Origin: a virus
Virus record (IMG/VR): IMGVR_UViG_3300005466_000024
Coordinates: 1 to 64,000 of that record
Reading direction: 5' to 3' (one strand)
DNA: 64,000 nucleotides
The notes under the pieces were generated by a model. The model saw only the letters and a list, made by a program, of their open reading frames with translations. It did not search any database and had not been told where the DNA came from. The translations under genes were made by a program, and so were the position numbers. This document shows, piece after piece, positions 27,650 through 58,628 of this stretch. The stretch's first letter is position 1. Each line of letters starts with the position of its first letter.

Positions 27650-28996
27650 TCACCTTACGAATATGTGCGGATCCCTCAGGTTGAACGTGTTGGGGCGTTG
27701 CCGACGCCGGGTGAGCGAGGTGCTGACGGTGGAGTCCCGGGCCGGCGCGGTGGTGGCTACCGCGTAGTCGGGGTAGAAGGTGAACATCACCTGGCTGGGG
27801 GCGCTCACCGGCAATTTGTAGTGGAAGGCATCGGCGATGCCGCCGATGCCGAGGATCCGTTCGATCTCGTGGGTGATCCACTCGAGCTGGGAATCCCACG
27901 CGAAGTGGTAGGGGGTGCCGTCGGGGTTCAGGGCCGGCGCCTGGGCCGGATGAATGCCGTACTTGCCGCCGGGGAAATTGCCGGGGCAGTCGCACAGCTC
28001 GTAGGTTTTCCATTCGGTGTACTGCTCGAAGGTCTGGTACACCGAATAGTTCTGTTCGGTCTTCACCGTGCCGTCTGGTTGCAGGGTGCCGTAGGTCACG
28101 GCATCGATCTGCGAGCGCGGATCCCCATACAGGTAGTACTGGCTGTACTCCTGGGTAGCGTTGAACGCCGCCGTGGGCGCCACCTGTGGTGTGGTCTGCG
28201 CGCGGAACAGCCATTGCTCACTGGGCAGTAGGTCGATCGGCAATAGCTGCGGCGGCGGCATCTGGGAGAGCACCGGGGTGGCGGTGACCAGTCGTTCCAC
28301 CTGGAAGTAGGTGGAGTCCGCTGTCGCGGTGGCTACCGGGACCGGTGTCTGTACCGCCAGCCCCTGCGTGTCCACGGTGATGATGGCGTCGATCGGGCTC
28401 ATCCGGTCGAGCATGTCGCGCAGCAGCCGCATCTCGATGGGCTCGAGGGTTTCCTTGTGTGGTTTGACGACGATTTCGTTACGCGCGCTGACCGGCGCGC
28501 GCCCCAGGTTCGCGCCGAGGCCCCAGTTGTCGGTGTAGCGCCATATCTCGAACAGGTCGCAGTCCACCGCGATGGCGGCGTTGACGCAGGTGCGGATCCC
28601 GGTGGGGGTGCCGCCCTGCGAGCAGGCGATGAAGTACTGCTTGACCCGGTCGCGGTACCAGGCGTCCTTGACGCGGACTTCGTCCCACTGATCGCTGGTG
28701 AGCAGGTCGACGGTCGGGTTGTAGGGGTAGGACTCGGCGGGACTGCGTGACAGGAAGCCGATCTGCCCGAAGATGTAGTCGAGGTCGTGGAAGTACAGTG
28801 TCTCCATCGCCCCGGCCATCCGCGCCAACAGGATCTCGTTGATCAGCGCGCCGGCCCCGGTGGTGCCGCACAAGGCGTCCACGATCTTGTAGAGGATGGT
28901 GCCCGCCGTGCCGGTGTACACCGAGGGGTCGCAGTGCGCGAGGCGCTGCGTCGTCGACATCGGCGGGATGAGCGGGAAGGGGCTTTGATCAGCCAC
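27650..28996 (-). CDS. Tail protein, baseplate-associated (tail protein I position)
   Basis: 448 residues. It follows baseplate J and a small gene, where P2/Mu-type phages encode tail protein I, and begins with the large helical/turn-rich pattern of such plug proteins (GALINEILLARMAGAMETLYFHDLDYIFGQIGF). The C-terminal half contains a Cys pair (ELCDCPGNFPGGKYG) and beta-strands. It probably links the baseplate to the fibres. The start overlaps the preceding ADP-ribosyltransferase-like gene by eight bases. Assignment is by position and general look, not by a specific motif. Confidence 0.55.
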   Translation of the reverse strand: MADQSPFPLIPPMSTTQRLAHCDPSVYTGTAGTILYKIVDALCGTTGAGALINEILLARMAGAMETLYFHDLDYIFGQIGFLSRSPAESYPYNPTVDLLTSDQWDEVRVKDAWYRDRVKQYFIACSQGGTPTGIRTCVNAAIAVDCDLFEIWRYTDNWGLGANLGRAPVSARNEIVVKPHKETLEPIEMRLLRDMLDRMSPIDAIITVDTQGLAVQTPVPVATATADSTYFQVERLVTATPVLSQMPPPQLLPIDLLPSEQWLFRAQTTPQVAPTAAFNATQEYSQYYLYGDPRSQIDAVTYGTLQPDGTVKTEQNYSVYQTFEQYTEWKTYELCDCPGNFPGGKYGIHPAQAPALNPDGTPYHFAWDSQLEWITHEIERILGIGGIADAFHYKLPVSAPSQVMFTFYPDYAVATTAPARDSTVSTSLTRRRQRPNTFNLRDPHIFVR

Positions 28997-29378
28997 GACT
29001 TATCCCCCCTGCCGCCGCGGGACGGTAAATGTACTCATCACCCTCCCAGTCATCGGGATCGGCGACGACATGGCTGTGGGGCACACTCCGTTGCAGCACC
29101 CTGCCCGTTCCGGCGTAGTCCTTCGCGAGCTGTTTGTTCGTGGTGACGAAATCGCCCGGAACGATCCCCTTCTGACCCCACGGTGCGCCCCGATAAATGA
29201 CGACCGGCTCGTCGGCCTGGACGCCACGCAGTTTGTCCAGCGTGAGTAGGTGCGGACTGATCGGGCCCGTCCGCGAGGATGGGTCGTAGTCGACGAATAG
29301 GCCACCCGTCGGATTGACGCTTTCCAATGTTGGATGCCACGCGGCCACTCGTTCGCGGGCCGTCAGGATCCTGCGCAT
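28989..29378 (-). CDS. ADP-ribosyltransferase-like protein, 129 residues, with MRRILTARERVA header
   Basis: Begins MRRILTARERVAAWHP, the same header as the 331-residue protein at 57633-58628. The rest follows the R-S-E order of mono-ADP-ribosyltransferases: VVIYRGAPWG (Arg on the first strand), DFVTTNKQLAKDYA (the STS-like strand and helix) and EGDEYIYRP at about residues 112-120 for the catalytic Glu region. It would transfer ADP-ribose from NAD+ to a host target. It is wedged between baseplate J (TGATG overlap) and the next tail gene, suggesting virion delivery like T4 Alt. It is short for the fold, and STS is replaced by TTN, so activity needs testing. Confidence 0.6.
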   Translation of the reverse strand: MRRILTARERVAAWHPTLESVNPTGGLFVDYDPSSRTGPISPHLLTLDKLRGVQADEPVVIYRGAPWGQKGIVPGDFVTTNKQLAKDYAGTGRVLQRSVPHSHVVADPDDWEGDEYIYRPAAAGGISRG

Positions 29379-31135
29379 CAGGGTGCTGCCTTGCGGGTGA
29401 TGATGACGTCCTGGAACACGGCCAGCGCATTGTCGGAGACCTTGAAGTCGTCGGTTTCGATGGTTTGCGGGGACGGGTCTGTGGGGTTGGCGAACACTTC
29501 GATGCCGTAGTCGGTGGAGTCGTCGGCCGAGGTGGTCAGCCGCACGTCGAGCACGCCGAGCACCTGCTGCACCGCCAGACAGATCCCGGCGACCTTGAGC
29601 TGGGGTCCGAACCCCAGGCCTTGGAAGTAGGTTTGCAGCTGGGTGCGGATCGCCGAGTTGGTGATCGCCACCGAGTAGGAGCGGTCGTATTCGACGCACA
29701 GGCAGACCACCAGGTACGACCAGGCCGCCTGGTGGACCATCACGTCGGTGCAGACCTGTTTGGAGGTGTCGACGATCGCCTGCAGCAGTTCCGGCACCTG
29801 GTTGTAGGTGTAGGTCAGGGTCAGTTCGGTGCCGTTGGCCGGGCCGGCGCCCGTCCATTCGATGCCGGAGGTTTCCGCTGGGCCACCGGCGAGCAGGGTG
29901 GTGTCGGCGAGCAGGAAATAGTGTGTGCCCTGGGCGTAGACGGTGACGCCGCTGGTGATGGTGGCCGGGAAGCTGACTATCGGCACCGAACCCAGCCGCA
30001 TGAACCGGTTGGTGGCCGAGGGGGTGCCCGCCGACCCGACCCGGCGAAACTTGCCGGTGTAGTAGGGCGACGCCGAGGAGGCCGACAGCGCCGTGGAGGT
30101 CACCACGGTTTGTTCGGTGACGGTGACCGGGGTGACACCGTCGGTGAACACGTCGACCTTGTTGGTGATGCCGTTGGGCGGGTCGTTGCGGGAGCTGCGG
30201 GTGGTGTAGGAAAATTCGAGGTCGACGACCTGGCCGACCATGTTGGCCAGCGCACCGGTGGAGATGGTGGTGAACACCGGGGACACCCCGGCGGACAGGT
30301 TGTAGTCGTCGATGTCGGAGTAGAACACCTCGCTTTCCTGTCCCAGGTCGGTGAAGCAGCTGCTCATCCCGCCCCACGCGTATTTCACGTCCTGGGTGAC
30401 CGGCAGCGTCAGGGTGGTGGCGGGTACTTCGATCTGGGTGGTGTACAGCGTGGTGGGCCCGAACACGGTGACCCGGCTGACGGTGTTGTTCTGCAGCGCA
30501 ATCGCCCGGTACCAGTCACTGGTCCCGGCGATGTTGCGCAGCAGGGTGGCCTTGAAGCGCATCCGCAGTTCGGCGTCGGTTTCCACGTCGACCCCTCCGC
30601 TCATGGCGGCGAGGTTGGTGACGGTGGCCGTCGCCAGGGTGGAGCCCAGCGAGGTGATGGAGCCCGGCGGCACATTGCCGACGGTGCCCACTGTGGTGCA
30701 CTGCACGGGGATGTCGATCGAATAGGATCCGGCGGTCAGCACCACCGCCTGGGTGGAGGCGAAGTACAGGGCGGCGCTGGCGCCGGGGACGGCGGTGTTG
30801 GTGTAGAACTGGGTGCCCAGGGACACGTTCTGGTCGCTCGCCGAGGTGGTGGACAGCGTCATTCGCACGACACCTTTGGCGGCCTTTCCCGCCAATCTTC
30901 CGTACCCGAATATCCCGACGAATTGTTCCAGCTCCAATCCGGACTTGTTCTCGATATCCAGTAGCGATCCCACCAGGTATTGGTCGACGTAGGCCGCACT
31001 GATTGCCTCTGCACAGGCATCGATGATTTTTCGTTCGGGGGTGCCCAATTCGCAGGACAGCCCTGGACAGGTGGTGGCCAGGGTGGCGATGATCTGGGAG
31101 GAGATTTCTGCCGGGGTCTTGCTCGACCTACTCAC
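29378..31135 (-). CDS. Baseplate J-like protein
   Basis: 585 residues. The N-terminus (ELGTPERKIIDACAEAISAAYVDQYL), the region VSLGTQFYTNT and the later AELRMRFKATLLRNIAGTS with AIALQNNTVSRVTVFGPT are the usual landmarks of the Baseplate_J (gp47-like) family, which joins the tube to the wedge ring in contractile tails. It directly follows the gp25-like gene, as in P2-like and Mu-like phages. Start is GTG with the ribosome site GGGAGG abutting it; three overlapping hairpins precede it (see 31135-31188). Confidence 0.85.
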   Translation of the reverse strand: MSRSSKTPAEISSQIIATLATTCPGLSCELGTPERKIIDACAEAISAAYVDQYLVGSLLDIENKSGLELEQFVGIFGYGRLAGKAAKGVVRMTLSTTSASDQNVSLGTQFYTNTAVPGASAALYFASTQAVVLTAGSYSIDIPVQCTTVGTVGNVPPGSITSLGSTLATATVTNLAAMSGGVDVETDAELRMRFKATLLRNIAGTSDWYRAIALQNNTVSRVTVFGPTTLYTTQIEVPATTLTLPVTQDVKYAWGGMSSCFTDLGQESEVFYSDIDDYNLSAGVSPVFTTISTGALANMVGQVVDLEFSYTTRSSRNDPPNGITNKVDVFTDGVTPVTVTEQTVVTSTALSASSASPYYTGKFRRVGSAGTPSATNRFMRLGSVPIVSFPATITSGVTVYAQGTHYFLLADTTLLAGGPAETSGIEWTGAGPANGTELTLTYTYNQVPELLQAIVDTSKQVCTDVMVHQAAWSYLVVCLCVEYDRSYSVAITNSAIRTQLQTYFQGLGFGPQLKVAGICLAVQQVLGVLDVRLTTSADDSTDYGIEVFANPTDPSPQTIETDDFKVSDNALAVFQDVIITRKAAP

Positions 31136-31188: not shown

Positions 31189-31191
31189 GGT

Positions 31192-31620: not shown

Positions 31621-31645
31621 CGTTTCGTGTTGTGCGTGTCACCCT

Positions 31646-32953
31646 TTACTGCCACTGCAGCAGCGTGTACCCGGCTCCGCCGTTGCTGCCCTGGCCATTG
31701 GAGTCGCCTCCGGCGCCGCCACCGCCCCCGGCCCCGGCGGTGGCCCCGTCACCTCCGGGGGCGCCCGCATTGCCGCCGCCGGGTTGACCGGCCGCCCCGG
31801 AGCCGCCGCCGCCGGCGTTTCCCAGCGCCGCCGCGCCACCGGCGGCACCGTTACCACTGCCGCCGGTTTGCTGTGCTCCACCAGTGGCGGTGGCCGAGTC
31901 GCCGCCCGCGCCACTGGTGTTCAAGTTGTGGGCACCGCTGGAGTCGCGACCGCCCCCACCACCACCGCCGGGGCCCTCCAGGCCGAGGCTGTCGAAGCCC
32001 GCCACCCCGCTGCCGTTGGTGCCGTTGGTGTTGTTGCCACCGGCCCCACCGGCCCTGCCGTTGGTGGCCGTGTCGGCGGTGAATCCGGTTGCCGTGGTGG
32101 TGCCTCCGGCACCACCGGCCGGTCGGGTGGCGGTGTTCGTTCCGGCGGTGCCGTGGCCGCCGCCACCGGCCGTGGCCACGATGGTGCCCGAGGTGAATGA
32201 GCTGTTGCCGCCGTTGGTGGTGGCCGTCCCCGCAGTCCCGACGGTTACCGAGTACGTCGAGCCGAGCAGGCTCACGCTCTCCCATCCGGTGTCGAGATAG
32301 GCGCCACCACCCCCGCCGGCACCGCCCGCTTCGGCGTTGAAGGCTGCCGCGCCACCTGCTCCACCGCCCCCGCCACCGCCGATGGCGACGAACCGCCACA
32401 GCGTCGCCCCGGCGGGCACGGTGACATTGGTGCGGGAGGTGTTGATCTCGCTGCGTATTACGGTCACTCTGCCGGTACCGGTCAGTGACGCGGCCCGGGT
32501 GAACTTGGCGAATGCCGCGACGGTGAGTCGTCCGGCCCCTGCCCTGGACGCGGTCACGGAGAACCGTGCGTAGCTGGCGGGGGTGAGGGTTCCGTGTCCA
32601 CTCGCCGCTCCCGGCAACCGGAACTGTGTCGCCACGGCGGTGGCGGTGAGTCGGCCCGTACCGATGGTGGTGCTGTTCGCACCGGCCCCCAGCACACACC
32701 GGCCACCCAGGGCCGCGGATACGAACCGGACGGCGCGTGTCGTTGCCATGATCGTTCCCCGGCCACGCAGGACAGGGGTGATCCGTATCAGGCTCATGTA
32801 CGCACTCGCCGTCAGGGTTCCCTCGCCCGTACACGTCCCGGCCACTGCCGAACCCGAGGGCCACACCTGGATGTCGCCCAGGTAGATCGCGAACACGACG
32901 GTTTCGCCCAGGTAGGCCGCAGTGATCGGGACGGCCCCGTCGTAGGCGCCCAT
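31646..32953 (-). CDS. Glycine-rich tail fibre-like protein with GxGxLT repeats
   Basis: 435 residues, ATG behind AGAAAGGGC. After a short N-terminal segment (AIYLGDIQVWPSG) come about seven copies of a 20-residue repeat (consensus GTGRLTATA..A.F....A.L.). Then follows TNVTVPAGATLWRF and a 250-residue glycine-rich domain (GGGGGGGAGG) ending GAGYTLLQWQ. The same glycine-rich domain, ending GAAYTLMQWM, starts the 1152-residue protein at 52829-56287, where the repeat order is reversed. Glycine-rich tips of this type occur at the ends of phage fibres and often bind receptors; that role is inferred. Confidence 0.7.
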   Translation of the reverse strand: MGAYDGAVPITAAYLGETVVFAIYLGDIQVWPSGSAVAGTCTGEGTLTASAYMSLIRITPVLRGRGTIMATTRAVRFVSAALGGRCVLGAGANSTTIGTGRLTATAVATQFRLPGAASGHGTLTPASYARFSVTASRAGAGRLTVAAFAKFTRAASLTGTGRVTVIRSEINTSRTNVTVPAGATLWRFVAIGGGGGGGAGGAAAFNAEAGGAGGGGGAYLDTGWESVSLLGSTYSVTVGTAGTATTNGGNSSFTSGTIVATAGGGGHGTAGTNTATRPAGGAGGTTTATGFTADTATNGRAGGAGGNNTNGTNGSGVAGFDSLGLEGPGGGGGGGRDSSGAHNLNTSGAGGDSATATGGAQQTGGSGNGAAGGAAALGNAGGGGSGAAGQPGGGNAGAPGGDGATAGAGGGGGAGGDSNGQGSNGGAGYTLLQWQ

Positions 32954-32961
32954 GCCCTTTC

Positions 32962-33486: not shown

Positions 33487-33487
33487 G

Positions 33488-40336: not shown

Positions 40337-41265
40337 TTACTGCCAGGGGCTCCAGTCCTGCCAGTACTCCCCCGCGCCGCCCGGCATGGCGCCCCCGTTG
40401 GCGGTGTGTTTCTCACCGTGGACCACCGCTGACGCGTACCACTGGTCGAGCGATTCGACGTTGGTGACCGGCCGGTCGCGTCCTTCTGCCCCTTCCAGGC
40501 CGAGCGCGGCGCGCATTTCGCCCTCGTAGAGTTGCGCCCAGCGTTCCGGGGACAGGTGGAAGGCCTGGTCCTTGACTTCCTCGCGGCGATCGGTCTGTTG
40601 GATGCGCCGGTCCATGTAGATCCAGTACAGCAGCGCCCAGCGTTGGAATCGGTTGAGGCTGCGTTGGTGCAGGAGGCCCTGTTCGTGGGCCAGACGGACC
40701 AGGACTTCGCTGACCTCGTCTAGCCGTCGGCTTTTCCCAGTTTCTGGGCCAGTTCGTAGAATTCGGCGTCGAGCTTGAGGATTTCGCCGTAGATCTGGGT
40801 GATGACCACCGGGTAGTAGCGCCGCAGCGCGGCGACCTTCTCGGCGTAGAGCTCGTCGTCGGTGAGTTGGCGCAGCGGGGTGACCAGGTCGGTGCCGTCG
40901 ATGCTGCGCACCCCGGCCGCGCACACCGCCAGTTGGTAGGCACGCTGCTCGGCGGGCGGGGCACCGAGAAATTCCTTGCAGAACAACCCGACCCGCAGGT
41001 CGTCGTCGGTGGTGAGGTTGGTGATGGCCACGGTGTGGCCCATCACCGAGATCGTTTTGTTGCGCCGCCCCACGGTGAGCAGGGTGTTGAACAGCGTCCG
41101 TTCCTCGTCGGTGAGTTCGGTGATGCCGTCGTCCCGGGTTTCCTCGTCCTGCGTTTCGCTGTCCGCAATGCGCCGGCGGGTTTCGGTGACCGGCGCCGGG
41201 GCGATCAGCGGGGGGTCTTCCCCTAGGTCGGGGTCGGCTACGATGATGCGCTGTTGCGGCATCAT
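40337..41265 (-). CDS. Tail assembly chaperone, long form made by -1 frameshift (about 309 residues)
   Basis: The upstream frame (40720-41265) and a downstream frame to 40337 join at the slippery heptamer G_GGA_AAA at 40732-40738. A -1 slip after Lys178 continues as SRRLDEVSEVLVRLAHEQGL to a stop at 40337, adding 131 residues. This is the conserved G/GT arrangement of tailed phages, just upstream of tape measure. The short and long forms coat the tape measure during tail assembly. The downstream frame has no credible independent start. Confidence 0.85.
40720..41265 (-). CDS. Tail assembly chaperone, short form
   Basis: 181 residues from ATG at 41265, overlapping the previous stop by four bases. 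The domain TDEERTLFNTLLTVGRRNKTISVMG and the helical end (AEFYELAQKLGKADG) resemble tail chaperone G proteins. Translation ends at TAG 40720-40722, ten bases after the slippery site. Most ribosomes should make this form. Confidence 0.8.
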   Translation of the reverse strand: MMPQQRIIVADPDLGEDPPLIAPAPVTETRRRIADSETQDEETRDDGITELTDEERTLFNTLLTVGRRNKTISVMGHTVAITNLTTDDDLRVGLFCKEFLGAPPAEQRAYQLAVCAAGVRSIDGTDLVTPLRQLTDDELYAEKVAALRRYYPVVITQIYGEILKLDAEFYELAQKLGKADG

Positions 41266-41945
41266 GGGCGCTGCTCGCGGTGTGCGCTCCGGTGGTGCCC
41301 GGGTCGGCCGCAGTGGCCGCACACCTCGTGGGAGGCCACCGTCTGGCGTTCCTCGGGGGGCAGCATGTTCGGGTTGCTGACCTGCTGGCTGGGCGGTGTT
41401 TTCTCCCGGGGTGGCGCCAGTTTCCTGGGGACTTTGTCCTTGGCCTCCTGCGCCACGTCGACGATCTGGTCGCCGGGCAGTTGGCCGGGCCACCCCGCCC
41501 AGGGATCCACGATGGCCTCGAGCCGGCGCGCCTCGTGGAATTCGTCGTCACCGCGGCCCGGGAGGTAGATCGGGGTGCCGAACGGGTGCGGGGCGTCGCC
41601 GTGGAAGTCGGGGTGCGGGCCGGGTTCCTCGCCGGGGTCGTGTTCGGGGGGTGGTCCCCAGTTGTAGCCGGATTCCTCGTCCTCGAGTGCCCGCTCGTGC
41701 TGCTCGTCGTCTTCCGGGGCGTATTCGTACTCGCGCAGCCATTCGTTCCAGTCGCCGTGGCCCCTGCTGGGTTCGCGGTGGTAGGCGGTGTCGTTCGGGT
41801 CGGCCGCCGCCCAGTTCAGCAGTCCGGCGTGGATCCGTTTACCGCCCAGCAGGGCATCGAACTCGGGGCTCGGGGCCCCGGTCATGCTGCGGGGATTCTG
41901 GTCGGGGGCACCCCACCATTGTTCGGCTTGCCGCTGCACGCGCAT
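41262..41945 (-). CDS. Hypothetical protein with C-terminal zinc knuckle, 227 residues
   Basis: ATG at 41945 behind GGAAGGAG. It is very acidic and Pro/Gly/His-rich in the middle (GPPPEHDPGEEPGPHPDFHG), so largely disordered, and ends with CGHCGRPGHHRSAH, a CCHH or CCHC-type knuckle. It lies between the glycan-modification fusion and the tail chaperones. Function unknown; it may be a scaffold or chaperone. Confidence 0.55.
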   Translation of the reverse strand: MRVQRQAEQWWGAPDQNPRSMTGAPSPEFDALLGGKRIHAGLLNWAAADPNDTAYHREPSRGHGDWNEWLREYEYAPEDDEQHERALEDEESGYNWGPPPEHDPGEEPGPHPDFHGDAPHPFGTPIYLPGRGDDEFHEARRLEAIVDPWAGWPGQLPGDQIVDVAQEAKDKVPRKLAPPREKTPPSQQVSNPNMLPPEERQTVASHEVCGHCGRPGHHRSAHREQRP

Positions 41946-41969: not shown

Positions 41970-43538
41970 TCAGATTCGCCGTGCATATCGGGGGGACAGT
42001 GGGACGGGCTGTGCGCGTTCCTCGACGACCGCACGCATGAATCCGGCCTCTCCGGATGCCACTGAATACCGTTGGGCCAGCCGGGAGTTGGTACGCCCGG
42101 CACCCTGCCCGATCCAGCGCCGGGTCTTCCAGTTGCGTCCGGGCCGCAGATGCCACAGATGACAGATGTCGTTGGAGGTCACCTCGTGCAAAGCGTATAG
42201 CGTGTCCAATGATTTGAGGAACGAGATGTCCTCCCCGCCCCATCCCGAAAAGCGGGGGTCCATTCCGCCGGTCAGCCAGAATGCTTCGGCGGGCATCATC
42301 TGTGCCAGTGCCCCATACAGGTAGCCGTAATTCACGGTGGCCGTTCCGCCGGGTTCCAGCCACTCCTGCCGGGGTGGGGAGGGGACGGCGTACGGCTGGG
42401 CCGGGTCGGTGGTCAGTAAGTCGATGGTGTACTCCTCGGAGAGGCGGTAGAGCCGCCGGTAGGGGACGTACCAGAGTTTGCGCCCGGCGGCCAGGGCCTC
42501 CTCGATGCTGTCCGCGCATTGCTGGATGACATGGGCATCGAGGTAGGCGTCGGCGTCGAGGATGAGCAGGATCCTCCCCCGGGCGCGTTCAGCGGCCCAG
42601 TTCACTGATCGGCACTTGCTGTAGGGCCAGGAGCCGTCGTGGCCGACGATGATCTCCGCATGGGGTAGTTGCTGCTGCCAGTGCTGCGACAGCCATGCCC
42701 ATACTCGTTCGCGGTGCTCGGTGTCCTCCTTGTCGTGCCGGTAGGGTACGAGCACCGACAGTTGCGGGCGCCGGCCCTTCTTGCGGGGCGGCAGGATCGT
42801 TGGGGGTTCGATGGTGGCGCGTGGTGGTGTCGTGCCGGTCGCGGTGGCCAGCGCGGCGCGCAGTTGTTCGCGGACCTCCTCGACGCGCGCGTAGGGGGCA
42901 CGCCAGAACTCCCCGAAGCTGGGGTCGGTGTCGTAGATCGAGGCGTAGTCGCGGTACTTGAAGTCGCCGCCCTCCTTGTCCGCACTGGGGAACAGTTCGG
43001 CGCGGCGTGGGATGCCGAAGGAGTCCGCGACGACGAGGCCGTGCAGGCTGGAGGACACGACTCGTTTACAGCTGGCGATCTCGGTGATCACCTCCCCCGG
43101 GGGTCGGCGCACGTCGATGATGTGGCCGTAGGGGAAGCGTTGCGCGAGTTTCTGGTCGCTCCAGTGTGGGATCACGCCGAGGTCGTATTTGGCCACGGTC
43201 TGCGGCACCCACTTGGAAGCGAGTAGGCCGGGATCCCCGAGTACCACCGAGGTGGGGACACCGCGCACGCGGGCGGCCGACAGCCGCCCGCGCAGTGCGA
43301 TCACGTTGGCCGCCGACAGGTCGACCTCGGAGTTCTCCCGCAGTTTGCCGGCTCCGCACACGGTGCCCGTCCAGCCCGGCGGGAGGTGTTCGAGGACCGA
43401 GCCGACGAGTACCAGGTCGGCCTGCGCGGGCGGCGCCCAGGTGCACTCGACGCCGAGGCGGGCCAGGATCCAGTTGTTCAGCTCGTCACCGAAGTTGTGC
43501 AGCGGAGGCCGCCGCCACCCGTAAACAGCACGGGGCAT
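41970..43538 (-). CDS. Polysaccharide pyruvyltransferase-glycosyltransferase fusion
   Basis: 522 residues. Residues 1-235 follow the WcaK/CsaB pyruvyltransferase fold (HNFGDELNNWIL at 14-25; SSSLHGLVVADSFGIP with the catalytic-type HG at 166-167). Residues about 255-500 are a GT-A glycosyltransferase: QLSVLVPYRHDKED, the DxD at 328-330 (LILDADAYLD) and DPRFSGWGGEDISF near 430. A pyruvyl ketal donor joined to a transferase suggests addition of a decorated sugar to virion proteins or to the host envelope. It sits in the tail operon just after the tail tube gene, behind a promoter-like sequence. Confidence 0.75.
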   Translation of the reverse strand: MPRAVYGWRRPPLHNFGDELNNWILARLGVECTWAPPAQADLVLVGSVLEHLPPGWTGTVCGAGKLRENSEVDLSAANVIALRGRLSAARVRGVPTSVVLGDPGLLASKWVPQTVAKYDLGVIPHWSDQKLAQRFPYGHIIDVRRPPGEVITEIASCKRVVSSSLHGLVVADSFGIPRRAELFPSADKEGGDFKYRDYASIYDTDPSFGEFWRAPYARVEEVREQLRAALATATGTTPPRATIEPPTILPPRKKGRRPQLSVLVPYRHDKEDTEHRERVWAWLSQHWQQQLPHAEIIVGHDGSWPYSKCRSVNWAAERARGRILLILDADAYLDAHVIQQCADSIEEALAAGRKLWYVPYRRLYRLSEEYTIDLLTTDPAQPYAVPSPPRQEWLEPGGTATVNYGYLYGALAQMMPAEAFWLTGGMDPRFSGWGGEDISFLKSLDTLYALHEVTSNDICHLWHLRPGRNWKTRRWIGQGAGRTNSRLAQRYSVASGEAGFMRAVVEERAQPVPLSPRYARRI

Positions 43539-49628: not shown

Positions 49629-50120
49629 ATGACACAGTCCACTACCCTCCTGGTTACTCCCGCCATCGCTGGAGCCGCACTTGCTGCACTGGTCGGGCTG
49701 GGCACGCCCACCGCCTCGGCCGCGCCAGGGGCCGCCGTCAACGTCAGCGGTATCGGTGTGAGCGTGGGTGACGCCACCGCCAATGCCAGCTTCGGCAATG
49801 CCGCTGCGGCGTTCAACGGCGGCAACGCCAGCGCGACCGGCGGCCTCGGCAACGTCGCACTCGCCAGTGGCACGAAGAGCGTGTCCACGATCAACGGTGG
49901 CTTCTTCAACGCCGCCGTCGCCAGTGGCGACAACAGCACGGCCCGTGTGGACGGCGGCAGCGGCAATGTTGTATTCGCGGGCCGGAACTCCGGTAGTGAG
50001 GTCGCCAAGGGAGCCAGTCTCAACGCCATCGCCAACTTCTGCAACAACGGCTCCAATATCGTGAGTGCGCAGTCCGCGCGCATCATCGTCAGCCCCGGCA
50101 CCACTGCCTGCAAACCCTAG
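49629..50120 (+). CDS. Secreted beta-roll-like repeat protein (moron candidate)
   Basis: 163 residues. A signal peptide spans about residues 1-32 (hydrophobic AIAGAALAALVGLG, cleavage after TASA before AP). The mature part has short Gly/Asn/Ala repeats (FGNAAAAFNGG; LGNVALASG; FFNAAVASG; SGNVVFAG), the pattern of left-handed beta-rolls, then two Cys near the C-terminus (NFCNNG; TTACKP) for a disulfide. Proteins like this are common in mycobacterial-group genomes. It has its own promoter-like region and terminator and is read opposite to the tail operon, so it may be expressed independently, for example by a lysogen. Confidence 0.65.
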   Translation: MTQSTTLLVTPAIAGAALAALVGLGTPTASAAPGAAVNVSGIGVSVGDATANASFGNAAAAFNGGNASATGGLGNVALASGTKSVSTINGGFFNAAVASGDNSTARVDGGSGNVVFAGRNSGSEVAKGASLNAIANFCNNGSNIVSAQSARIIVSPGTTACKP

Positions 50121-51358: not shown

Positions 51359-51370
51359 GCAGCCGAGACT

Positions 51371-51389: not shown

Positions 51390-51413
51390 GTTCAACTAAC
51401 TATGAATTGCCTG

Positions 51414-51761
51414 CTAGGTCATCGTGAAGGTCGGTGTGACCACGATTTGACCTTGGGCCCCCATGACCACTGAGGTGATGGTGTTGTTGTCGTAGTGGTT
51501 GTTGCCGGAGCTGGCTGAGGCGAGTAGCACGTAGGTGTAGGTGGCGGCGGCGACGTCGATGGTGACGGCCGAGCCGTTGACCACTCCGCCGGAGGCGGAG
51601 CCCCAGGTGGTGTTCTTCCTTGCGTATGCGGGGGAGCCGCCGGTGGCTTCGTTGGATGGTGTGGAGCTGGTGCCGGGGTTGCCGGTGGCCAGGCCGACCC
51701 ACGATCCGTAGCCCTTGTACGTGGTGGCCATGTTGTTGAGGGTGTCGGTTTCGATGACCAT
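51414..51761 (-). CDS. Virion decoration / fibre-type protein, 115 residues
   Basis: ATG 51761 behind GGGAGAGGAATCCC. The sequence (GYGSWVGLATGNPGTSST; NEATGGSPAYARKNTTWGSA; GQIVVTPTFTMT) resembles the short beta-sandwich proteins often annotated as tail fibre or head decoration in actinophages. It stands alone between the HNH gene and the divergent methyltransferase pair. Confidence 0.6.
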   Translation of the reverse strand: MVIETDTLNNMATTYKGYGSWVGLATGNPGTSSTPSNEATGGSPAYARKNTTWGSASGGVVNGSAVTIDVAAATYTYVLLASASSGNNHYDNNTITSVVMGAQGQIVVTPTFTMT

Positions 51762-51805
51762 GGGATTCCTCTCCCGAAGCGCGCGGGGACCTTCTCCCTT
51801 TAGGG

Positions 51806-52090
51806 GTGCGATACGATCCGGGCGTGTCTCCGCAGGATTTGCAGCGGCTTGCGCCGGTTGCCGCTCAGTTCGTCACCGGTGCCCCCGATGCCGCCGCGCA
51901 GATGGTGGGTTTGACGATCAACGTGCCCGGTTACGCGCAGCTGGCGCTGCAGGTTCTCGATCAGTCTCAGGTGGCCGAGACGGGGGTGAGTGTGCAGCTC
52001 ACCATCGATCAGATCTCCTTGGCCGATATGGCTGGTCTGCGCGATTCGATCAGCGCGGAGATCGCCCGGCTGACCACCGGGCAGGGGTGA
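51806..52090 (+). CDS. Small plus-strand protein, 94 residues
   Basis: GTG at 51806 (or a second in-frame GTG at 51824). The protein (LQRLAPVAAQFVTGAPDAA; TGVSVQLTIDQISLADMAGL) is helical at both ends with no motif. Its TGA overlaps the methyltransferase ATG (TGATG), so the two are cotranslated. The ribosome site is weak. Function unknown. Confidence 0.45.
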   Translation: MRYDPGVSPQDLQRLAPVAAQFVTGAPDAAAQMVGLTINVPGYAQLALQVLDQSQVAETGVSVQLTIDQISLADMAGLRDSISAEIARLTTGQG

Positions 52091-52824
52091 TGGCGCGCGA
52101 CTCGCTCAACGAGATCGCGTTGCGCCGTCACACGGACAAGAGTTCGGCCGGCCACAATTACTGTCCGATCTACGAGCGGTTGTTCGCCCATCTGCGGGAT
52201 AAACCGGTGGCCCTGCTCGAGTTGGGGGTGTTCGAGGGCGCCAGTCTGCGGACCTGGGCCGAGTACTTCACCCACCCGGACACCAGGATCGTCGGTATCG
52301 ATATCGACCTGGGTGTCGGCAACCATGCCGCGCAGCCGTTGTGGGGCCGCTACTACGGTTCCTATCAGCCGTTGCGCCAGTGCTACGGCCCACCACCGCC
52401 GGGTATCGCCACCTATCTGGGGGATCAGGCGGCGGTGCCCGCCGGGTTGACCGGCTGGCATCCCGACATCGTCATCGACGATGCCTCCCATGTTTCGTCC
52501 AAGACGATCGCTTCGTTCAAGACCTGGTTCCCGCTCCTGCGTCCTGGCGGCCTGTACGCCGTGGAGGATGTGAACACCTCCTACGACGTGCGGTGGGGGG
52601 CCGACGAGTCCAGTGCGGATCCGGACCGCCCGCCGCGGCCCGGCGGCCAGACGGCCATGCAGTTCCTGCGTCGGCTGGCCGATGAGGTGCAGGCCCAGAT
52701 ACCACAATCGGAGCATGTCGACCTCATTCGTCTTGCCCCGGAATACCATCTGGGATTCGATATCGACCGGTTGTGCTTTTATCCGAACATGGTTGTCGCC
52801 CACAAACGAGACACTGGTATTTGA
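52090..52824 (+). CDS. Class I SAM-dependent methyltransferase, sugar O-methyltransferase-like
   Basis: 244 residues. TDKSSAGHNYCPIYERLF (15-32), LLELGVFEGASLRTWAEYF (42-60), IVGIDIDL and DIVIDDASH (126-134) give the SAM-binding layout of macrocin/rhamnosyl O-methyltransferases. It probably methylates a sugar hydroxyl, which fits the pyruvyltransferase and glycosyltransferase genes in the same phage. It converges on the giant repeat gene, with only five bases between stops. An alternative target is a host glycopeptidolipid-type glycan. Confidence 0.7.
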   Translation: MARDSLNEIALRRHTDKSSAGHNYCPIYERLFAHLRDKPVALLELGVFEGASLRTWAEYFTHPDTRIVGIDIDLGVGNHAAQPLWGRYYGSYQPLRQCYGPPPPGIATYLGDQAAVPAGLTGWHPDIVIDDASHVSSKTIASFKTWFPLLRPGGLYAVEDVNTSYDVRWGADESSADPDRPPRPGGQTAMQFLRRLADEVQAQIPQSEHVDLIRLAPEYHLGFDIDRLCFYPNMVVAHKRDTGI

Positions 52825-52828
52825 GTTA

Positions 52829-55474
52829 TCAGAACATCGCGAAGAACTGTCCGGACAGCGCGAGTACCCTTTCGTCGGCCAGGGCCGACAGGGTACCGGT
52901 ACCCGACAGTGTGCCCGCGCTGGCGGCGCCGAGGCTGGCGACGGCCACCAGGGTGCCCGTGCCGCCGATGACGGTGACACAGACGTACCTGGGGATGGGG
53001 ATGGCGGTCAGGGTGCCCGCGCCGAGGACGGTTGCCGCGGTGGTGGTGATCGCCGCTACGGTGGCGCTGAGCCCGCCGGTGCCGGACAGGTCGGCCGATT
53101 GGGCAACGGAGGCGGCCGTCGAGGCCGTCAGTGTGCCGTGGCCCTGCCATTGGCCCGTTTGCAGGATTCTGGCGACCGTGTTCGCCGTCAGTTGACCGGT
53201 TCCGTCCAGCGCAGCGGTTTCCGGGAATTTCGCGCTCGCGGACGCAGTCAGGGTGCCCGTGCCGGTGGTGGCTGCTGTGGTGTGGATGGAGAACATCCGG
53301 GCGGTGCCCGTCAGGGCACCGTGTCCGGTGAATTGGCCGGTGGTTCCCGAGGAACCCAGGGTGGCTGCTGTCAGGGCACCGTTGCCGCGCAGCACGGCCG
53401 ACCTGGTGAACTGGGCCGACCCGGTGGCGGTGAGCCTGCCGGTGCCGGACAGCGATGCGGGCGCAGTGATGCTGTAGAGCGTGGCGGTGGCGGTCAGTGC
53501 GCCCCGGCCGCTCAGGGTCGCTGGGCGCAGGTACCGTTCGTTCCCGGTGGCCGTCAGTTTTCCGGTGCCGGAGAGCGTCGCGGCAACCCGGATCTGGAAC
53601 ATCGTGGCCGTGGCGGTCAGTGTGCCGCGGCCCCCGAGTGCTGCGGTCCTGGCGAGCCGGGCGAACGCGGTGGCCGTCAGCTCCCCGTCGCCGCCGAATG
53701 CTGCGGTGGCCTGGATCTGGAACATTTGTGCGGTCGCGGTCAACGCGCCGTGGCCTGCGGGGGTGCACACCCGGTTGAATCCCGACTGGACCAGGTTCGT
53801 GAACGTGCCGCGACCGCTCAGTGGGGCAGCGAGGGTGAATTTGGTGGCGGCGGCCGTTACCGTCAGGGTGCCGTGTCCGGTGACGGCTGCGGTGACGGCG
53901 AACTTGCTCGAGGTCGTCGCCGTGAGTGTTCCGGTGCCCTGCAACGTGACAGTTGCGCGGATCTGGTACATCCGTGCGGTCGCGGTCAGCTGGCCGGTGC
54001 CGGGCAGTCCTGCCGTCCGGGAGTATTTCGGGTAGGCCGCTGCGGTTAGGGCACCGTTGCCGCGCAGCGGTGCGGTGATCGTGAATCGGGTGGCTGCTGC
54101 CGCCGCCGTTAGGGCACCGTTGCCGTTCGGTGCGAAGGTTCGCGTGAAGCTGGCATGGGCCGTCGCGGTCAGTCGTCCGGTTCCCGGGAGCACCGCCGCC
54201 GACTGGATCCGATACATGACGGCGGTCGCCGTGAACTGTCCGGTGCCCTTGATCCCCGCTGCGGCGGGGATCTTGGCGTAGACCGTTGCCGTGAGTCTGC
54301 CGATGCCGGTCAGGGGTGCTGTGACCAGGAATTTGGCGGTACCGGTCGCGGTCAACGTCCCGCGTCCGGCCAGCGCCGCCGCCAGCGTGAACTGTTTGGC
54401 CACCGCTGTCGCGGTCAGCCGGCCCGTGCCGGCGAACATGGCGGCGACCGCGAATCGGGCGGTGGCCGTGGCGGTCAGCGTGCCGCGGCCGGTCAGTGGT
54501 GCGTTCAGTGTGAACTTGGTGGCGGCGGCGGTGACCGTCAACCGGCCCGTACCGGCCAGCGTGGCAGTCGCAGCGAACTTGGCGGTAGCGGTCGCGGTGA
54601 GCCGCCCGGTGCCCTTCAACGGCGCGGTAAGGGTGAACTTGGTGGCGGTGGCGGCGGCAGCGAGTCGCCCGATACCGGTGGTGGGTGCGGTGCTGGCGAA
54701 CTTCGCGAACGCCGTGGAGGTGAGTCGCCCCGTCCCCTTCAGTGGCGTGGTGAGGACGAACTGTGTGGCTGCTGCCGTAGCGGTCAGCGTGCCTCGACCG
54801 TTCAACGCGGCAGTACGGGCGAATTTCGGTGCGGTGGTTGCCGACAGGATCCCTGTTCCTCGCAGGTTGCCGGTGACCGCAAAGATCTGTTTGGTGGTGG
54901 CGCTCAGTACGCCGTGACCGGTCGGGTTGCCGGTCGCGAATTCGCGTTCGATGACGGTCGCGGTGAGTCTGCCGGTGCCTGCCAGGGATGCGGCGACCGC
55001 GAATCGGGCGGTAGCCGTGGCGGTGAGGATTCCGCGCCCGCCCAGTGCTGCCGTGAGTGTGAACCTGGTGGCCGCCGCGGTCGCGGTCAATCGGCCCGTA
55101 CCGGCCAGTGCGGCGGTCCTGGTGAACTTGGCGGTGGCCGTAGCGGTCAGTGCACCGGTACCCCTCAGTGGTGCGCTGAAAGTGAATTTGGTGGCCACCG
55201 CGGTCGCGGTGAGCCTGCCGGTGCCCTTCAGGGCAACGGTCGCAGCGAACTTGGCGGTACCGGTTGCGGTGAGCCGCCCGGTGCCGGACAGCGGCGCGGT
55301 AAGGGTGAACTTGGTGGCCGTGGCGGTGGCCGTCAACCGGCCCGTACCAGCCAGCGTGGCGGTCGCCGCGAACTTGGCCAGTGTGGTGGCAGTCAAGCCG
55401 CCGGTGCCGGTGAAGCTCGCGGTGCGTGATGCGGGCCCCCCGGCCGACGCCGTCGCGGTGAGCTGGCCGTGGCC
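52829..55474 (-). repeat. About 43 coding repeats of 60-63 bp
   Basis: The DNA repeats mirror the protein repeats. On the plus strand the unit reads GCGGTCAGCGTGCCGCGGCC-like, with neighbouring copies differing at many silent positions but keeping codon-level structure. Unit lengths switch between 60 and 63 bases (20 or 21 residues). Only some pairs, for example repeats 3-5 with 14-16, are nearly alike, indicating duplication of blocks by recombination. Confidence 0.75.
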
Positions 55475-56287
55475 GACCATGTCGCCCGCGAACATCCACT
55501 GCATGAGCGTGTATGCGGCGCCGCCCGTGCCGCCCGCAGTGGTGGCAGAGGTATTGCCGCCACCACCGCCTGCGCCAGCTCCTTGGGCGCCGCCATTGCC
55601 ACCTGTGCCTCCTGTGCCGCCGTTGCGGCCGCCACCACCGCCACCGCCGCCACCGGGATTGCCGGAGCTGGCCGTGGTACCGGCACCACCATTGGTTCCG
55701 CTGGTGGTACCGCCGGTGCCACCGCCCGCCACGGAGGACGCGCCACCGTTCGCGCCGGCGCCCGCGGTACCGAGCTGCTGTCCACCACCGCCGCCACCAC
55801 CGGCGGCTTGCTGCCCGGTGGCGGCGGACGGCACGGTCGGCAAACTACTGCTGCCGCCGAAACCGGCGGTACCGGAGACCCCGGTTGTCGTGGTGGCGCC
55901 ACTGATGCCACTGGCCGTCGCCGTGCCCCCAGTGCCCGCCGTACCGGCCACATTGGAGGCGCCGTTGCCGCCCTTGTTGCCGCCGTTGGCGGTGATGGTC
56001 ACCGACCCGCTGGTGAATCGCGACAACGCGCCGTTGGTTTGCGACGCGCCGCCGCTGCCCACCGTCACCGAGTACGTGGACCCGAGCGTCGACACCGACT
56101 GCCAGCCGGTGTCGACGTATCCGGCGCCGCCGCCACCGCCACCACCGCAGCAGTTGCCGACACCGAGGTTGATGCCCGTACCGCCACCCCCGCCGCCGCC
56201 GTACGCGGTGAATCGCCATTGCAGGGCCCCCGTAGGAACCGCGACGTTGCTGCGAGTGACGTTGACTTCGCTGGTGGTGACCGTCAT
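52829..56287 (-). CDS. Giant fibre-like repeat protein, 1152 residues
   Basis: Residues 1-271 form a glycine-rich domain starting EVNVTRSNVAVPTGALQWRF and ending GAAYTLMQWMF, paralogous to the C-terminal domain of the 31646-32953 protein. Residues 272-1152 are about 43 tandem copies of a 20-21-residue repeat, consensus GTGRLTATA.A.F....A.L., with invariant Gly1 and nearly invariant Gly3. The chain ends LALSGQFFAMF with no other domain. The regular spacing suggests a beta-solenoid or fibrous rod. It is likely a receptor-contacting fibre; secretion motifs are absent. Confidence 0.75.
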   Translation of the reverse strand: MTVTTSEVNVTRSNVAVPTGALQWRFTAYGGGGGGGTGINLGVGNCCGGGGGGGAGYVDTGWQSVSTLGSTYSVTVGSGGASQTNGALSRFTSGSVTITANGGNKGGNGASNVAGTAGTGGTATASGISGATTTTGVSGTAGFGGSSSLPTVPSAATGQQAAGGGGGGGQQLGTAGAGANGGASSVAGGGTGGTTSGTNGGAGTTASSGNPGGGGGGGGGRNGGTGGTGGNGGAQGAGAGGGGGNTSATTAGGTGGAAYTLMQWMFAGDMVGHGQLTATASAGGPASRTASFTGTGGLTATTLAKFAATATLAGTGRLTATATATKFTLTAPLSGTGRLTATGTAKFAATVALKGTGRLTATAVATKFTFSAPLRGTGALTATATAKFTRTAALAGTGRLTATAAATRFTLTAALGGRGILTATATARFAVAASLAGTGRLTATVIEREFATGNPTGHGVLSATTKQIFAVTGNLRGTGILSATTAPKFARTAALNGRGTLTATAAATQFVLTTPLKGTGRLTSTAFAKFASTAPTTGIGRLAAAATATKFTLTAPLKGTGRLTATATAKFAATATLAGTGRLTVTAAATKFTLNAPLTGRGTLTATATARFAVAAMFAGTGRLTATAVAKQFTLAAALAGRGTLTATGTAKFLVTAPLTGIGRLTATVYAKIPAAAGIKGTGQFTATAVMYRIQSAAVLPGTGRLTATAHASFTRTFAPNGNGALTAAAAATRFTITAPLRGNGALTAAAYPKYSRTAGLPGTGQLTATARMYQIRATVTLQGTGTLTATTSSKFAVTAAVTGHGTLTVTAAATKFTLAAPLSGRGTFTNLVQSGFNRVCTPAGHGALTATAQMFQIQATAAFGGDGELTATAFARLARTAALGGRGTLTATATMFQIRVAATLSGTGKLTATGNERYLRPATLSGRGALTATATLYSITAPASLSGTGRLTATGSAQFTRSAVLRGNGALTAATLGSSGTTGQFTGHGALTGTARMFSIHTTAATTGTGTLTASASAKFPETAALDGTGQLTANTVARILQTGQWQGHGTLTASTAASVAQSADLSGTGGLSATVAAITTTAATVLGAGTLTAIPIPRYVCVTVIGGTGTLVAVASLGAASAGTLSGTGTLSALADERVLALSGQFFAMF

Positions 56288-56294
56288 CTACGGG

Positions 56295-56768
56295 TCACCC
56301 CACTGACGGGCGGATCGCCCCCACGGGGTCCACGGCCAGGCAGAAGAACACCGACTCGGCCGCATCGAACACCAGCCCGACGTGGTGGATCCTGCCGGGG
56401 CGGGTGACCCCCAGCAGTTGGGCCACCCCGGAGTCGCGGAACCACACGGGATCCCAGGTGATCTGCTGGGGGCTGCCGTTGTCGCTGATGCGCATCATCA
56501 ACCGGTGGTGGTCGGGGGGACTGCCGGTGGCCGACACGTACATGGCGGTGTCCTGGTTGGTGACGTTGAATGCGTCGTAGGCGCCGGCGTCGATGGTCAG
56601 GGTCGGTGTGCTGCGTTCTTCCCCCACCCGGGAGGTGGGGGCGAACAGCTCGAGGAGGGCCTCGATCCAGCCTCGAGTGGCGGCGTCGTCGTCGTGGGTG
56701 GGGTCGGCGACGTGCTGGGCGCGCCCACCCACCAGATCCACGCCCCCGTAGATCTTCTTCGCCGCCAT
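56295..56768 (-). CDS. Virion protein, 157 residues
   Basis: Starts MAAKKIYGGVDLVGGRAQ. The beta-rich middle (TLTIDAGAYDAFNVTNQDTAMYV; RLMMRISDNGSPQQITW) resembles tail-fibre-associated proteins found before fibre genes. Eight bases separate its stop from the giant repeat gene. Likely a fibre attachment or adaptor protein. Confidence 0.5.
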   Translation of the reverse strand: MAAKKIYGGVDLVGGRAQHVADPTHDDDAATRGWIEALLELFAPTSRVGEERSTPTLTIDAGAYDAFNVTNQDTAMYVSATGSPPDHHRLMMRISDNGSPQQITWDPVWFRDSGVAQLLGVTRPGRIHHVGLVFDAAESVFFCLAVDPVGAIRPSVG

Positions 56769-56793
56769 CGTGTCCTCCCTCGATGGGAGGCAC

Positions 56794-57633
56794 CTAGACC
56801 AGTTCGGCCCTTCCTGCCACCGGCTGCCCGAATGTGACCACCACCGTGTCGGGGGCCGGGTAGGACACCGGTGCCTCCACCCCTTCTCCGTTCACGATCA
56901 GGGCCACCGACGGGTAGTGGTCGAGGGGGTGCACGATGATCCACGGGTCGGCGGGGGTGGGCTGCTCGAAGGTGTAGCTGTCCGGCTCGGTGGCCCCCGC
57001 CGGTACCAGTACCACCCGCTGATCGGGCGGCACGACGACGACTGGGCCGGTGATGTTCACGGGTGTGCTGAAGTCCACCCCGAGCACCGGGTACGAGCAG
57101 ATCGGCAGGGTGGGGGCCAGTTTGCTGATGATGGCGCGCTGACCGATGACGTCCCAGCGTTCCTGCCCGAACCGGGTGCCGGTGCGCAGGCTGTCGCGGG
57201 TGACGGCCTGCACCCCGTAGAACCCCTCGAGTTCGGTGGCCCGCCCATTGGCGTCCCACTGCCGTACCCGGATGATGAAGTCGTGTTCGACGAGCAGCGG
57301 GTACCACTCGAACTGCGCTTCGCGGGAATCGGCCGCCCATATGCCCTGTTTGAGGAACTGCTCGGAGACGATGTGGTCGGCGAACAGGCCGTGGACCCGG
57401 CGCACATCCTTGATCGGCGGGTACATGGTGGTGCCGTAGCAGACCGAACATTCCCCGTCGGTGCTGGAGTACACGTCATCGTTACAGGCCGGGCAGCGCG
57501 GCGTGTCCTTGTCGATCTCGGGACGGGCCATGGACAGCAGTACGCACTGCTCGCCGGCCATCACCAGGGAGTCACGCACGTCCTGGCGGGTCGTCCGAAT
57601 ACAATAATCCTCAACCGATTTGATGGCGGTCAT
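56794..57633 (-). CDS. Virion protein with zinc-ribbon-like motif, 279 residues
   Basis: ATG 57633 shares the TGATG junction with the ART gene. It carries CPACNDDVYSSTDGECSVCYG, a CxxC...CxxC zinc ribbon near residues 50-70, then a beta-rich domain (FEWYPLLVEHDFIIRVRQW) and a C-terminal Ig-like region (APDTVVVTFGQPVAGRAE). Cotranslated with the ART gene. Function unknown. Confidence 0.55.
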   Translation of the reverse strand: MTAIKSVEDYCIRTTRQDVRDSLVMAGEQCVLLSMARPEIDKDTPRCPACNDDVYSSTDGECSVCYGTTMYPPIKDVRRVHGLFADHIVSEQFLKQGIWAADSREAQFEWYPLLVEHDFIIRVRQWDANGRATELEGFYGVQAVTRDSLRTGTRFGQERWDVIGQRAIISKLAPTLPICSYPVLGVDFSTPVNITGPVVVVPPDQRVVLVPAGATEPDSYTFEQPTPADPWIIVHPLDHYPSVALIVNGEGVEAPVSYPAPDTVVVTFGQPVAGRAELV

Positions 57634-58628
57634 CAGCCCTCCCCCGCCGAGCGGATCTTCTCCACGATGCGGGCTTTGTCGGTCACCCAACCCTCCCGGG
57701 CGTCGCCGTTCCAGGGCCACGGCCCGCGGTGGGGCTCGACCCGGTACAGGAAAGCCTGTCCGTGATCCCTCACGAGGTACTTCATCCAGTCGTCCGAATG
57801 CGTGAGGTCATGCTCGACCCACGTCCAGTGAGCCCGGTTGTCCAATCCGCCGTGGTACGGCGCATCGAGCCATGGCGCCTTGCCCTTGCGGGCGTCCAGT
57901 ACGGTACCGACCGGCAGGTCGTGGAAAGTAGCGTGATACCAGTCCACACCGACCGGGGTCGGGTCCGGGGGGTGGTCGCGGTAGCGTTGCTGCCAGCCAC
58001 GCTCGTCGTAGGCGTCCTGCGGGCCCAGGAAGTGGCCCTCGGACCCCTCGGGGTCGGTGCGATCGTCGAGGAGGAAGCCGGGTTCGCGCCACACGTCGGG
58101 GTCGCGGGGTGCGGCTACTCGGTGCGCGTGCCACGCGGCGACCCTCTCCCCGGCGATCGGAATTTCCAGCCAATCGTCGGGATGCTGCCGACGTATCCGA
58201 ATCGACTGGGGATTGACCCCATCCTTGCCCCTGAATCGGTAGTACTGACCCATCCATGGCTCGGCAGCGCTCGTATCACCGTCACCGGAAACAATCACCT
58301 GGTAGTGGGCCTTGGGATCCACGTTATTAGGGCCGACACCATAGGTGAGCTTATGGGTCGAGAACCTCTCGGCAGATTTGGGATCGGGAGTCCACCACTC
58401 CCCTAATCCCTTAGTTCCCAAATGGTTGAGTAGGTTCGGAGCCAAGGACAGATCCGACTTCCCGCCAAGAGCCGACTCCAATTGAGCAACGAGGTTGGGG
58501 GGCATATCTTCTCGCCGCAAAGCAATACCGCGATGCAAACGAGTAGGTGGACCACCATCCGGAACGAGTTGAGACATCCCCTGATGCCACACCGCCACCC
58601 TCTCGCGGGCCGTGAGGATGCGTCTCAT
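57633..58628 (-). CDS. Two-domain ADP-ribosyltransferase-like protein, 331 residues
   Basis: Begins MRRILTARERVAVWHQ, matching the header of the 129-residue gene at 28989. Domain 1 (about 28-157) has RLHRGIALRRED (R33), GEWWTPDPKSAERFS (76-90) and HPDDWLEIPI (E155), the R-S-E order. A second header-like AGERVAAWHAHRVA follows (159-172). Domain 2 (about 228-331) resembles rifampicin-type (Arr) ADP-ribosyltransferases: VDWYHATFHDLPVGTVLDA, WVEHDLTHSDDW, QAFLYRVEPHRGPW and VTDKARIVEKI. It sits between virion genes with four-base overlaps. Targets are unknown; antibiotic inactivation is possible but less likely than host takeover. Confidence 0.7.
   Translation of the reverse strand: MRRILTARERVAVWHQGMSQLVPDGGPPTRLHRGIALRREDMPPNLVAQLESALGGKSDLSLAPNLLNHLGTKGLGEWWTPDPKSAERFSTHKLTYGVGPNNVDPKAHYQVIVSGDGDTSAAEPWMGQYYRFRGKDGVNPQSIRIRRQHPDDWLEIPIAGERVAAWHAHRVAAPRDPDVWREPGFLLDDRTDPEGSEGHFLGPQDAYDERGWQQRYRDHPPDPTPVGVDWYHATFHDLPVGTVLDARKGKAPWLDAPYHGGLDNRAHWTWVEHDLTHSDDWMKYLVRDHGQAFLYRVEPHRGPWPWNGDAREGWVTDKARIVEKIRSAGEG

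What the first reader, a model, noticed from the sequence alone, without database searches (positions are those of the whole stretch)
28989..58628. Two tail-operon genes encoding three ADP-ribosyltransferase-like domains
The 129-residue gene and the two-domain 331-residue gene both read as ART folds with R / STS-like / Glu landmarks, and the last domain resembles rifampicin ADP-ribosyltransferase. Both are embedded by 1-8 base overlaps in virion operons, which suggests packaging and injection, as with T4 Alt. The two domains in the longer protein may modify different targets.
Basis: partly seen in the sequence, partly recalled or inferred. Interest (0 to 1): 0.85.

Follow-up and report, generated by a model that had tools for sequence, protein, structure and literature searches.

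The report
Shared address tag on phage effectors
A large soil phage carries genes for likely host-modifying (ADP-ribosylating) enzymes inside the operon that builds its particle, and each starts with the same short peptide that dozens of otherwise unrelated proteins of related phages also carry at their start, as if it were a shipping label for loading enzymes into the particle.

Summary
Both genes are real: A (28989-29378) and B (57633-58628), minus strand, in the virion operon of a 180.7-kb Myrna/Phrappuccino-like myophage. A is probably an ART (AF2 core pLDDT about 95; top PDB folds are ARTs, weak E; R63/T79/E115 invariant). B's last domain is Arr-like, shown through relatives that hit PF12120. 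B's first domain derives from an R-S-E ART family but lacks the ExE glutamates, so is probably inactive. The stronger result: A and B share an N-terminal peptide, MRRILTARERVA(A/V)WH. Two more genes of this genome carry it, three carry variants, and B has a second copy between its domains. In all IMG/VR contigs a pattern for this tag hits 36 places, 36/36 at N-termini, on many unrelated bodies (ARTs, GNATs, DUF7178, SprT-like, glutaredoxin). A consensus tag finds 409 places in 201 of 50,697 phage records and none in plasmids; 257 Gb of cellular genomes gives 5 hits, none a credible tagged gene. Tag codons differ synonymously, so the peptide is selected. Best explanation: a T4/P1-like capsid-targeting sequence on interchangeable injected effectors. 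Packaging, injection and catalysis are inferred, not shown.

The parts
28989..29378 (-). Gene A, 129 aa, tagged ART-like protein
   Evidence: ORF; 10 relatives; AF2 and Foldseek; tagged full-length relatives L074 62% and L061 51%
29334..29378 (-). N-terminal tag of A, MRRILTARERVAAWH
29016..29231 (-). ART core of A (about residues 50-121) with R63, T79, E115
   Evidence: invariant columns; pLDDT about 95
57633..58628 (-). Gene B, 331 aa, tag - R-S-E-type ART-derived domain - internal tag copy - Arr-like domain
   Evidence: ORF; homologies
58584..58628 (-). N-terminal tag of B, MRRILTARERVAVWH
58155..58547 (-). B domain 1 (about residues 28-158): R and T kept, ExE absent
   Evidence: 40% identity over 93 residues to L070 protein; alignment; AF2 pLDDT about 50-85
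58128..58169 (-). Internal tag copy in B, IPIAGERVAAWH (residues 154-167), at the junction before domain 2
57636..57962 (-). B domain 2, Arr-like (WYHAT...)
   Evidence: 27% to Phrappuccino gp68; relatives hit PF12120 at E 0.0015-0.0018; AF2 model of this part is poor
41262..41945 (-). Gene G, 227 aa, variant tag MRVQRQAEQWWG; weak DUF7251 match; lies between tube and tape measure genes
58625..59605 (-). Conserved gene before the cargo slot (phrog_2791, Phrappuccino gp66)
56794..57636 (-). Conserved gene after the cargo slot (phrog_2806, Phrappuccino gp69)

Best explanation
A and B are cargo effectors of the virion. Each begins with a peptide of about 15 residues (common form R-I-V-T-A-R-E-Q-x-E-M-L-x-P-W; here R-R-I-L-T-A-R-E-R-V-A-x-W-H) that acts like the capsid-targeting sequences of T4 and P1: it brings whatever protein carries it into the assembling head. 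The cargo is then injected with the DNA and acts early in the host. A (R63/T79/E115) and B's Arr-like C-terminal domain would ADP-ribosylate a host molecule. B's first domain is an ART relative without ExE and is more likely a non-catalytic remnant. B looks like a fusion of two separately tagged cargo genes, which explains its internal tag copy. Shown here: the shared tag, its N-terminal placement, its conservation as a peptide, the exchange of bodies in one slot, the domain homologies. Inferred: packaging in the head, injection, catalysis and targets.
For: Tag: four best six-frame matches in 180.7 kb are the N-termini of A, B, C, D; recovered by a profile from other genomes only. 36 of 36 IMG/VR pattern matches lie at N-termini on unrelated bodies; 409 places in 201 phage records, none in plasmids, 5 non-credible hits in 257 Gb of cellular genomes. 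Peptide-level selection: A versus B 6 identical, 6 synonymous, 1 changed codon; in other contigs codons after the tag are unrelated. Slot: every cargo found between the gp66 and gp69 homologues is tagged, though bodies differ; empty in Willis, filled in the close relative Colt. Internal tag copies at domain junctions in B and Phrappuccino gp57. ART. Precedent: 30 N-terminal residues of P1 DarB suffice for head targeting (PMC9024508); T4 CTS of 10-20 residues (PMC5694885).
Against: No proteomics of any of these virions was found. Where the tag goes (head, tail, chaperone) is not shown. Genes A and G lie among tail genes rather than head genes. Foldseek E-values are about 0.4-0.5, not significant alone. 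B and its domain 2 have no direct Pfam hit. Some ART-containing proteins of the same phages (Willis gp84, Myrna gp78) carry no evident tag.
Confidence: 0.62

Rival explanations
1. The tag is a docking peptide, not a packaging signal: it binds a phage chaperone or inhibitor that keeps the effectors inactive in the producing cell, or tethers them to tail or baseplate parts.
For: Genes A and G lie among tail and baseplate genes; the tag is predicted as a short helix before a disordered linker, a form that suits docking as well as targeting.
Against: Several tagged genes lie near the capsid gene or terminase (ScoobyDoobyDoo gp94 and gp97; C and D here); many tagged bodies (GNAT, glutaredoxin, DUF7178) are not obviously toxic.
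Confidence: 0.22
2. A and B are late intracellular enzymes that act in the producing cell, like T4 ModA/ModB in place of action, and are not in the virion.
For: No direct virion evidence exists; late operon expression alone would allow action in the producing cell.
Against: Common peptide on unrelated proteins and its restriction to this phage group; precedent of head-packaged ARTs (PMC9503650).
Confidence: 0.12
3. The tag is a DNA-level feature: a recombination joint, promoter or translation-start element copied in front of many genes.
For: A shared 5' end would help genes to be exchanged in one slot.
Against: Codons differ synonymously while the peptide stays; internal in-frame copies at domain junctions.
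Confidence: 0.04
4. Gene A is not an ART but a small domain that resembles one by chance.
For: No Pfam ART hit for A or its 10 relatives; Foldseek E-values not significant.
Against: The four best of 54 PDB matches come from ART2.2, ExoS and CNFy, with PARPs, KptA and iota toxin lower down; R63, T79, E115 invariant.
Confidence: 0.2

Closest known systems
T4 capsid targeting sequence (CTS) of internal proteins and Alt
   Same: Short N-terminal peptide on injected proteins, one of them an ART; operon near head and baseplate genes (PMC5694885, PMC9503650).
   Different: Tag sequence unrelated as far as seen; here the cargo list is far wider and exchangeable; cleavage of the tag untested.
P1 DarB N-terminal packaging signal
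   Same: N-terminal 30 residues sufficient for head targeting of an anti-restriction protein (PMC9024508).
Polyvalent proteins and phage ARTs near virion genes (Iyer et al. 2017, 2022)
   Same: Same domain types: ARTs, GNATs, ParB, peptidases; late-operon context; predicted injection. Gene A's domain occurs inside such giant proteins.
   Different: Here the domains are mostly separate small proteins, each with its own tag; the tag is not mentioned in the passages of either paper that I read or searched.
Rifampin ADP-ribosyltransferase Arr (PF12120)
   Same: Relatives of B domain 2 hit it at E 0.0015-0.0018.
   Different: Scores below the curated cut-off; B itself has no hit; substrate unknown.
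ParB C-terminal-domain proteins of mycobacteriophages (phrog_2579)
   Same: Contain gene A-type and R-S-E-type ART domains.
   Different: Annotated as ParB; several carry no tag and lie outside the B slot.

Membership tests
Capsid-targeting sequence (T4/P1 kind) | Short peptide at the N-terminus of several different virion-bound proteins | tested here: met
   36/36 N-terminal on many unrelated bodies; virion-bound itself not shown
Capsid-targeting sequence (T4/P1 kind) | Sufficient to bring a foreign protein into the head | not testable with these tools
   needs a reporter fusion
Capsid-targeting sequence (T4/P1 kind) | Removed by the prohead protease in T4 | tested here: inconclusive
   phages encode a prohead-protease-like protein; many tags contain A-R-E, variants do not; no peptide data
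R-S-E clade ART | Arg in strand 1, S/T in strand 2, catalytic Glu | tested here: met
   gene A: R63, T79, E115 invariant
R-S-E clade ART | Arg, S/T and ExE in B domain 1 | tested here: not met
   ExE replaced by GQYYRF; ancestry kept, activity doubtful
R-S-E clade ART | ART fold | tested here: inconclusive
   top matches are ARTs but E 0.4-0.5
Arr / PF12120 | Score above the family cut-off | tested here: not met
   B domain 2 no hit; relatives 18.9-19.1 bits against cut-off 25
Arr / PF12120 | ADP-ribosylation of rifampicin | not testable with these tools
   needs enzyme assay
T4 Alt-like packaged ART | Present in the virion and injected | not testable with these tools
   inferred from tag and operon only
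Polyvalent protein | Two or more effector domains in one polypeptide near virion genes | tested here: inconclusive
   B has two ART-derived domains, one probably inactive; A has one domain and does not qualify

The most novel reading that the evidence does not exclude
A general protein-loading address of large actinobacterial myophages: any enzyme given the tag enters the head, so these phages swap effectors in and out of fixed slots. The tag imitates the N-terminal arm of their own major capsid protein (RKLSAREKQAKL beside RIVTAREQxEML), so cargo is loaded through the same contacts as shell subunits.
Probability: 0.25. Interest if true: 0.9.

Novelty: new variant of a known kind. Interest (0 to 1): 0.78.

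Why it matters
Phages are known to inject host-modifying proteins, but which proteins are injected can rarely be read from sequence, and in P1 no shared targeting consensus was found. A recognisable tag turns that into a search: it marks about two genes per genome in about 200 isolates that grow on the laboratory host M. smegmatis, and more in metagenomic relatives. It nominates ARTs, acetyltransferases, DUF7178 proteins and a Zeta-type kinase as injected effectors, most of them now annotated as hypothetical, and gives a direct experimental handle.

Tried and rejected
Direct Pfam/PHROG identification of A and B: no ART family. PDB sequence search: no meaningful match; ciliary, NCOA7, barnase and ferritin hits rejected. 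DNA pattern for the ERVAxWH form of the tag in IMG/VR: only near-identical contigs of this phage plus one portal-gene chance hit, L027. Domain-level searches for B in IMG/VR gave few relatives. The first alignment for the B model (A6) laid the end of domain 1 onto domain 2; it was replaced by a trimmed one (A7), so the last strand of domain 1 was modelled without relatives. DNA-level explanation of the tag rejected because of synonymous variation. Literature searches for the tag by sequence or description found nothing, but subscription papers and preprints are not held.

Full report
The window is bases 1-64000 of G000, a 180,705-bp virus record. Its tail sheath is about 59% identical to those of Mycobacterium phages Phrappuccino, ScoobyDoobyDoo and Myrna, and the head-tail operon is colinear on the minus strand with Phrappuccino gp44-gp88: portal at 78.0-75.6 kb, prohead-protease-like protein at 68.5-65.7 kb, major capsid protein at 65.1-64.1 kb, then sheath, tape measure and baseplate. 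The two genes of the finding exist as described.

Gene A. Ten related domains, 40-50% identical to A, lie in viral contigs, mostly inside multidomain proteins of several hundred to 2,800 residues. R63, T79 and E115 are invariant. AlphaFold2 gives a confident core (residues 50-118) and a low-confidence N-terminal helix followed by a disordered linker. The best PDB matches are CNFy (which, from my own knowledge, has an ART-like domain in the fragment matched), ART2.2 and ExoS, but with E about 0.5. I take A to be an ART with about 80% confidence. Two tagged relatives are 62% and 51% identical over A's length (L074, L061).

Gene B. Domain 1 is 40% identical over 93 residues to part of another tagged protein (L070) and aligns with the R-S-E-type domains of Phrappuccino gp57 and of about 190 'ParB-like' mycobacteriophage proteins. 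Those have ExE; B has GQYYRF at that place. An insertion could hide a displaced glutamate, so 'inactive' is probable, not certain. Domain 2 is related to Phrappuccino gp68 (27%), to ScoobyDoobyDoo gp94 and to an L070 protein; the latter two hit Arr-ms below the curated cut-off. The AF2 model is fair for domain 1 and poor for domain 2, and its best PDB match is PARP16 at E 0.36.

The slot. B lies between the homologues of Phrappuccino gp66 and gp69. In relatives the same place holds gp67 and gp68 (Phrappuccino), gp173 (Skog), gp109 (Pupper), gp114 (Colt) or gp114 (ScoobyDoobyDoo), and nothing in Willis, a close relative of Colt. Each occupant starts with the same kind of peptide: ILKQAQQFSWR and ILKQAEQYSWR, IRTAREQVATLAPW, VVTAREQVATLAPW, IVTAREQYEMLAPW, FLTAREQAECLSPW; here ILTARERVAVWH.

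The tag. In this genome the four best six-frame matches to the motif are the N-termini of A, B, C (G000 94498-95679, DUF7178) and D (94121-94501). With a profile trained only on other genomes, A, B, a gene at 88691-89011 (E) and D fill the first four places. A wider profile, trained with them included, adds F (114668-115660) and G (41262-41945) as variants. A degenerate DNA pattern for the TAREQ...L.PW form gave 36 matches in the whole of IMG/VR, all 36 within seven codons of a start codon. Their bodies, together with the isolate proteins, fall into 16 single-linkage clusters: gene A-type, Arr-like and R-S-E ARTs, acetyltransferases, DUF7178, SprT-like, ParB, glutaredoxin, and a Zeta toxin domain in gp57. 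One contig carries five tagged genes, another three in 25.6 kb. The same pattern in 257 Gb of bacterial and archaeal genomes gave 5 matches, none a credible tagged gene. A 22-residue consensus found 409 places in 201 of 50,697 phage records; 200 of the 201 are Mycobacterium, Mycolicibacterium or Gordonia phages. It found none in 72,556 plasmids. Within genomes the tag codons are mostly identical or synonymous, while in other contigs the 20 codons after the tag are unrelated; so selection acts on the peptide. Internal copies precede the second effector domain in B and in gp57, as expected if tagged genes fused.

How it probably works. T4 and P1 use short N-terminal sequences to bring injected proteins into the head (PMC5694885; PMC9024508). 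The tag fits that role and the operon position. What it binds is unknown. The capsid protein's N-terminal arm contains a similar stretch in all five phages compared (RKLS/T-[AT]-x-EKQ). By tag score it ranks third of 154,561 windows in Willis and fifth of 187,635 in Skog, but only about fortieth of 295,368 here. The profile includes tags from close relatives of Willis and from Skog itself, and the capsid proteins are homologous, so this is a lead only. Many tags contain A-R-E, matching the AXE cleavage motif of SPN3US, but the variants do not, so cleavage is open.

Known and new. ARTs near virion genes, and their likely injection, have been proposed (PMC5512222; PMC9503650), and solo acetyltransferases of mycobacteriophages were already suggested to be in the capsid (PMC5512222). 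I found no mention of the shared tag, within the limits of the searches; the P1 paper notes no consensus among Dar N-termini. The ARTs are new members of a known kind; the tag system is a new variant of capsid targeting with wide, exchangeable cargo, provided packaging is confirmed.

Noticed in passing
L026:18601-21867 (Phrappuccino gp57): 1088-aa protein: tag, R-S-E-type ART, second internal tag copy, then a Zeta toxin kinase domain (PF06414, E 4e-17).
   Followed up: partly
major capsid proteins, e.g. L040:24653-25654 and G000 64111-65091: Conserved N-terminal arm RKLSAREKQAKL resembles the tag; third-best window in Willis by tag score. Possible mimicry or a shared protease site.
   Followed up: partly
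L021:13668-14660 (-), Willis gp107, Skog gp166: Tagged family of unknown function (phrog_3170) with a conserved FRxVHDxFGHAATG...SETxGQN core, also present in the L008 multidomain protein that holds a gene A-type ART.
   Followed up: partly
L070:3449-6511: Tagged 1021-aa protein: Arr-like domain, SprT-like domain and several GNAT domains, a tagged polyvalent protein.
   Followed up: partly
52829-56287 (-): 1152-aa protein made largely of short repeats (LTATAxATKFTLxAPLxGTGR) after a glycine-rich part; related repeats in 31646-32953.
   Followed up: no
41970-43538 (-): Polysaccharide pyruvyl transferase plus glycosyltransferase domains in one protein inside the tail operon.
   Followed up: no
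49629-50120 and 51715-52824 (+): Plus-strand ORFs inside the minus-strand tail operon: one looks like a small secreted protein (signal-peptide-like start), one contains a stretch that looks methyltransferase-like by eye.
   Followed up: no
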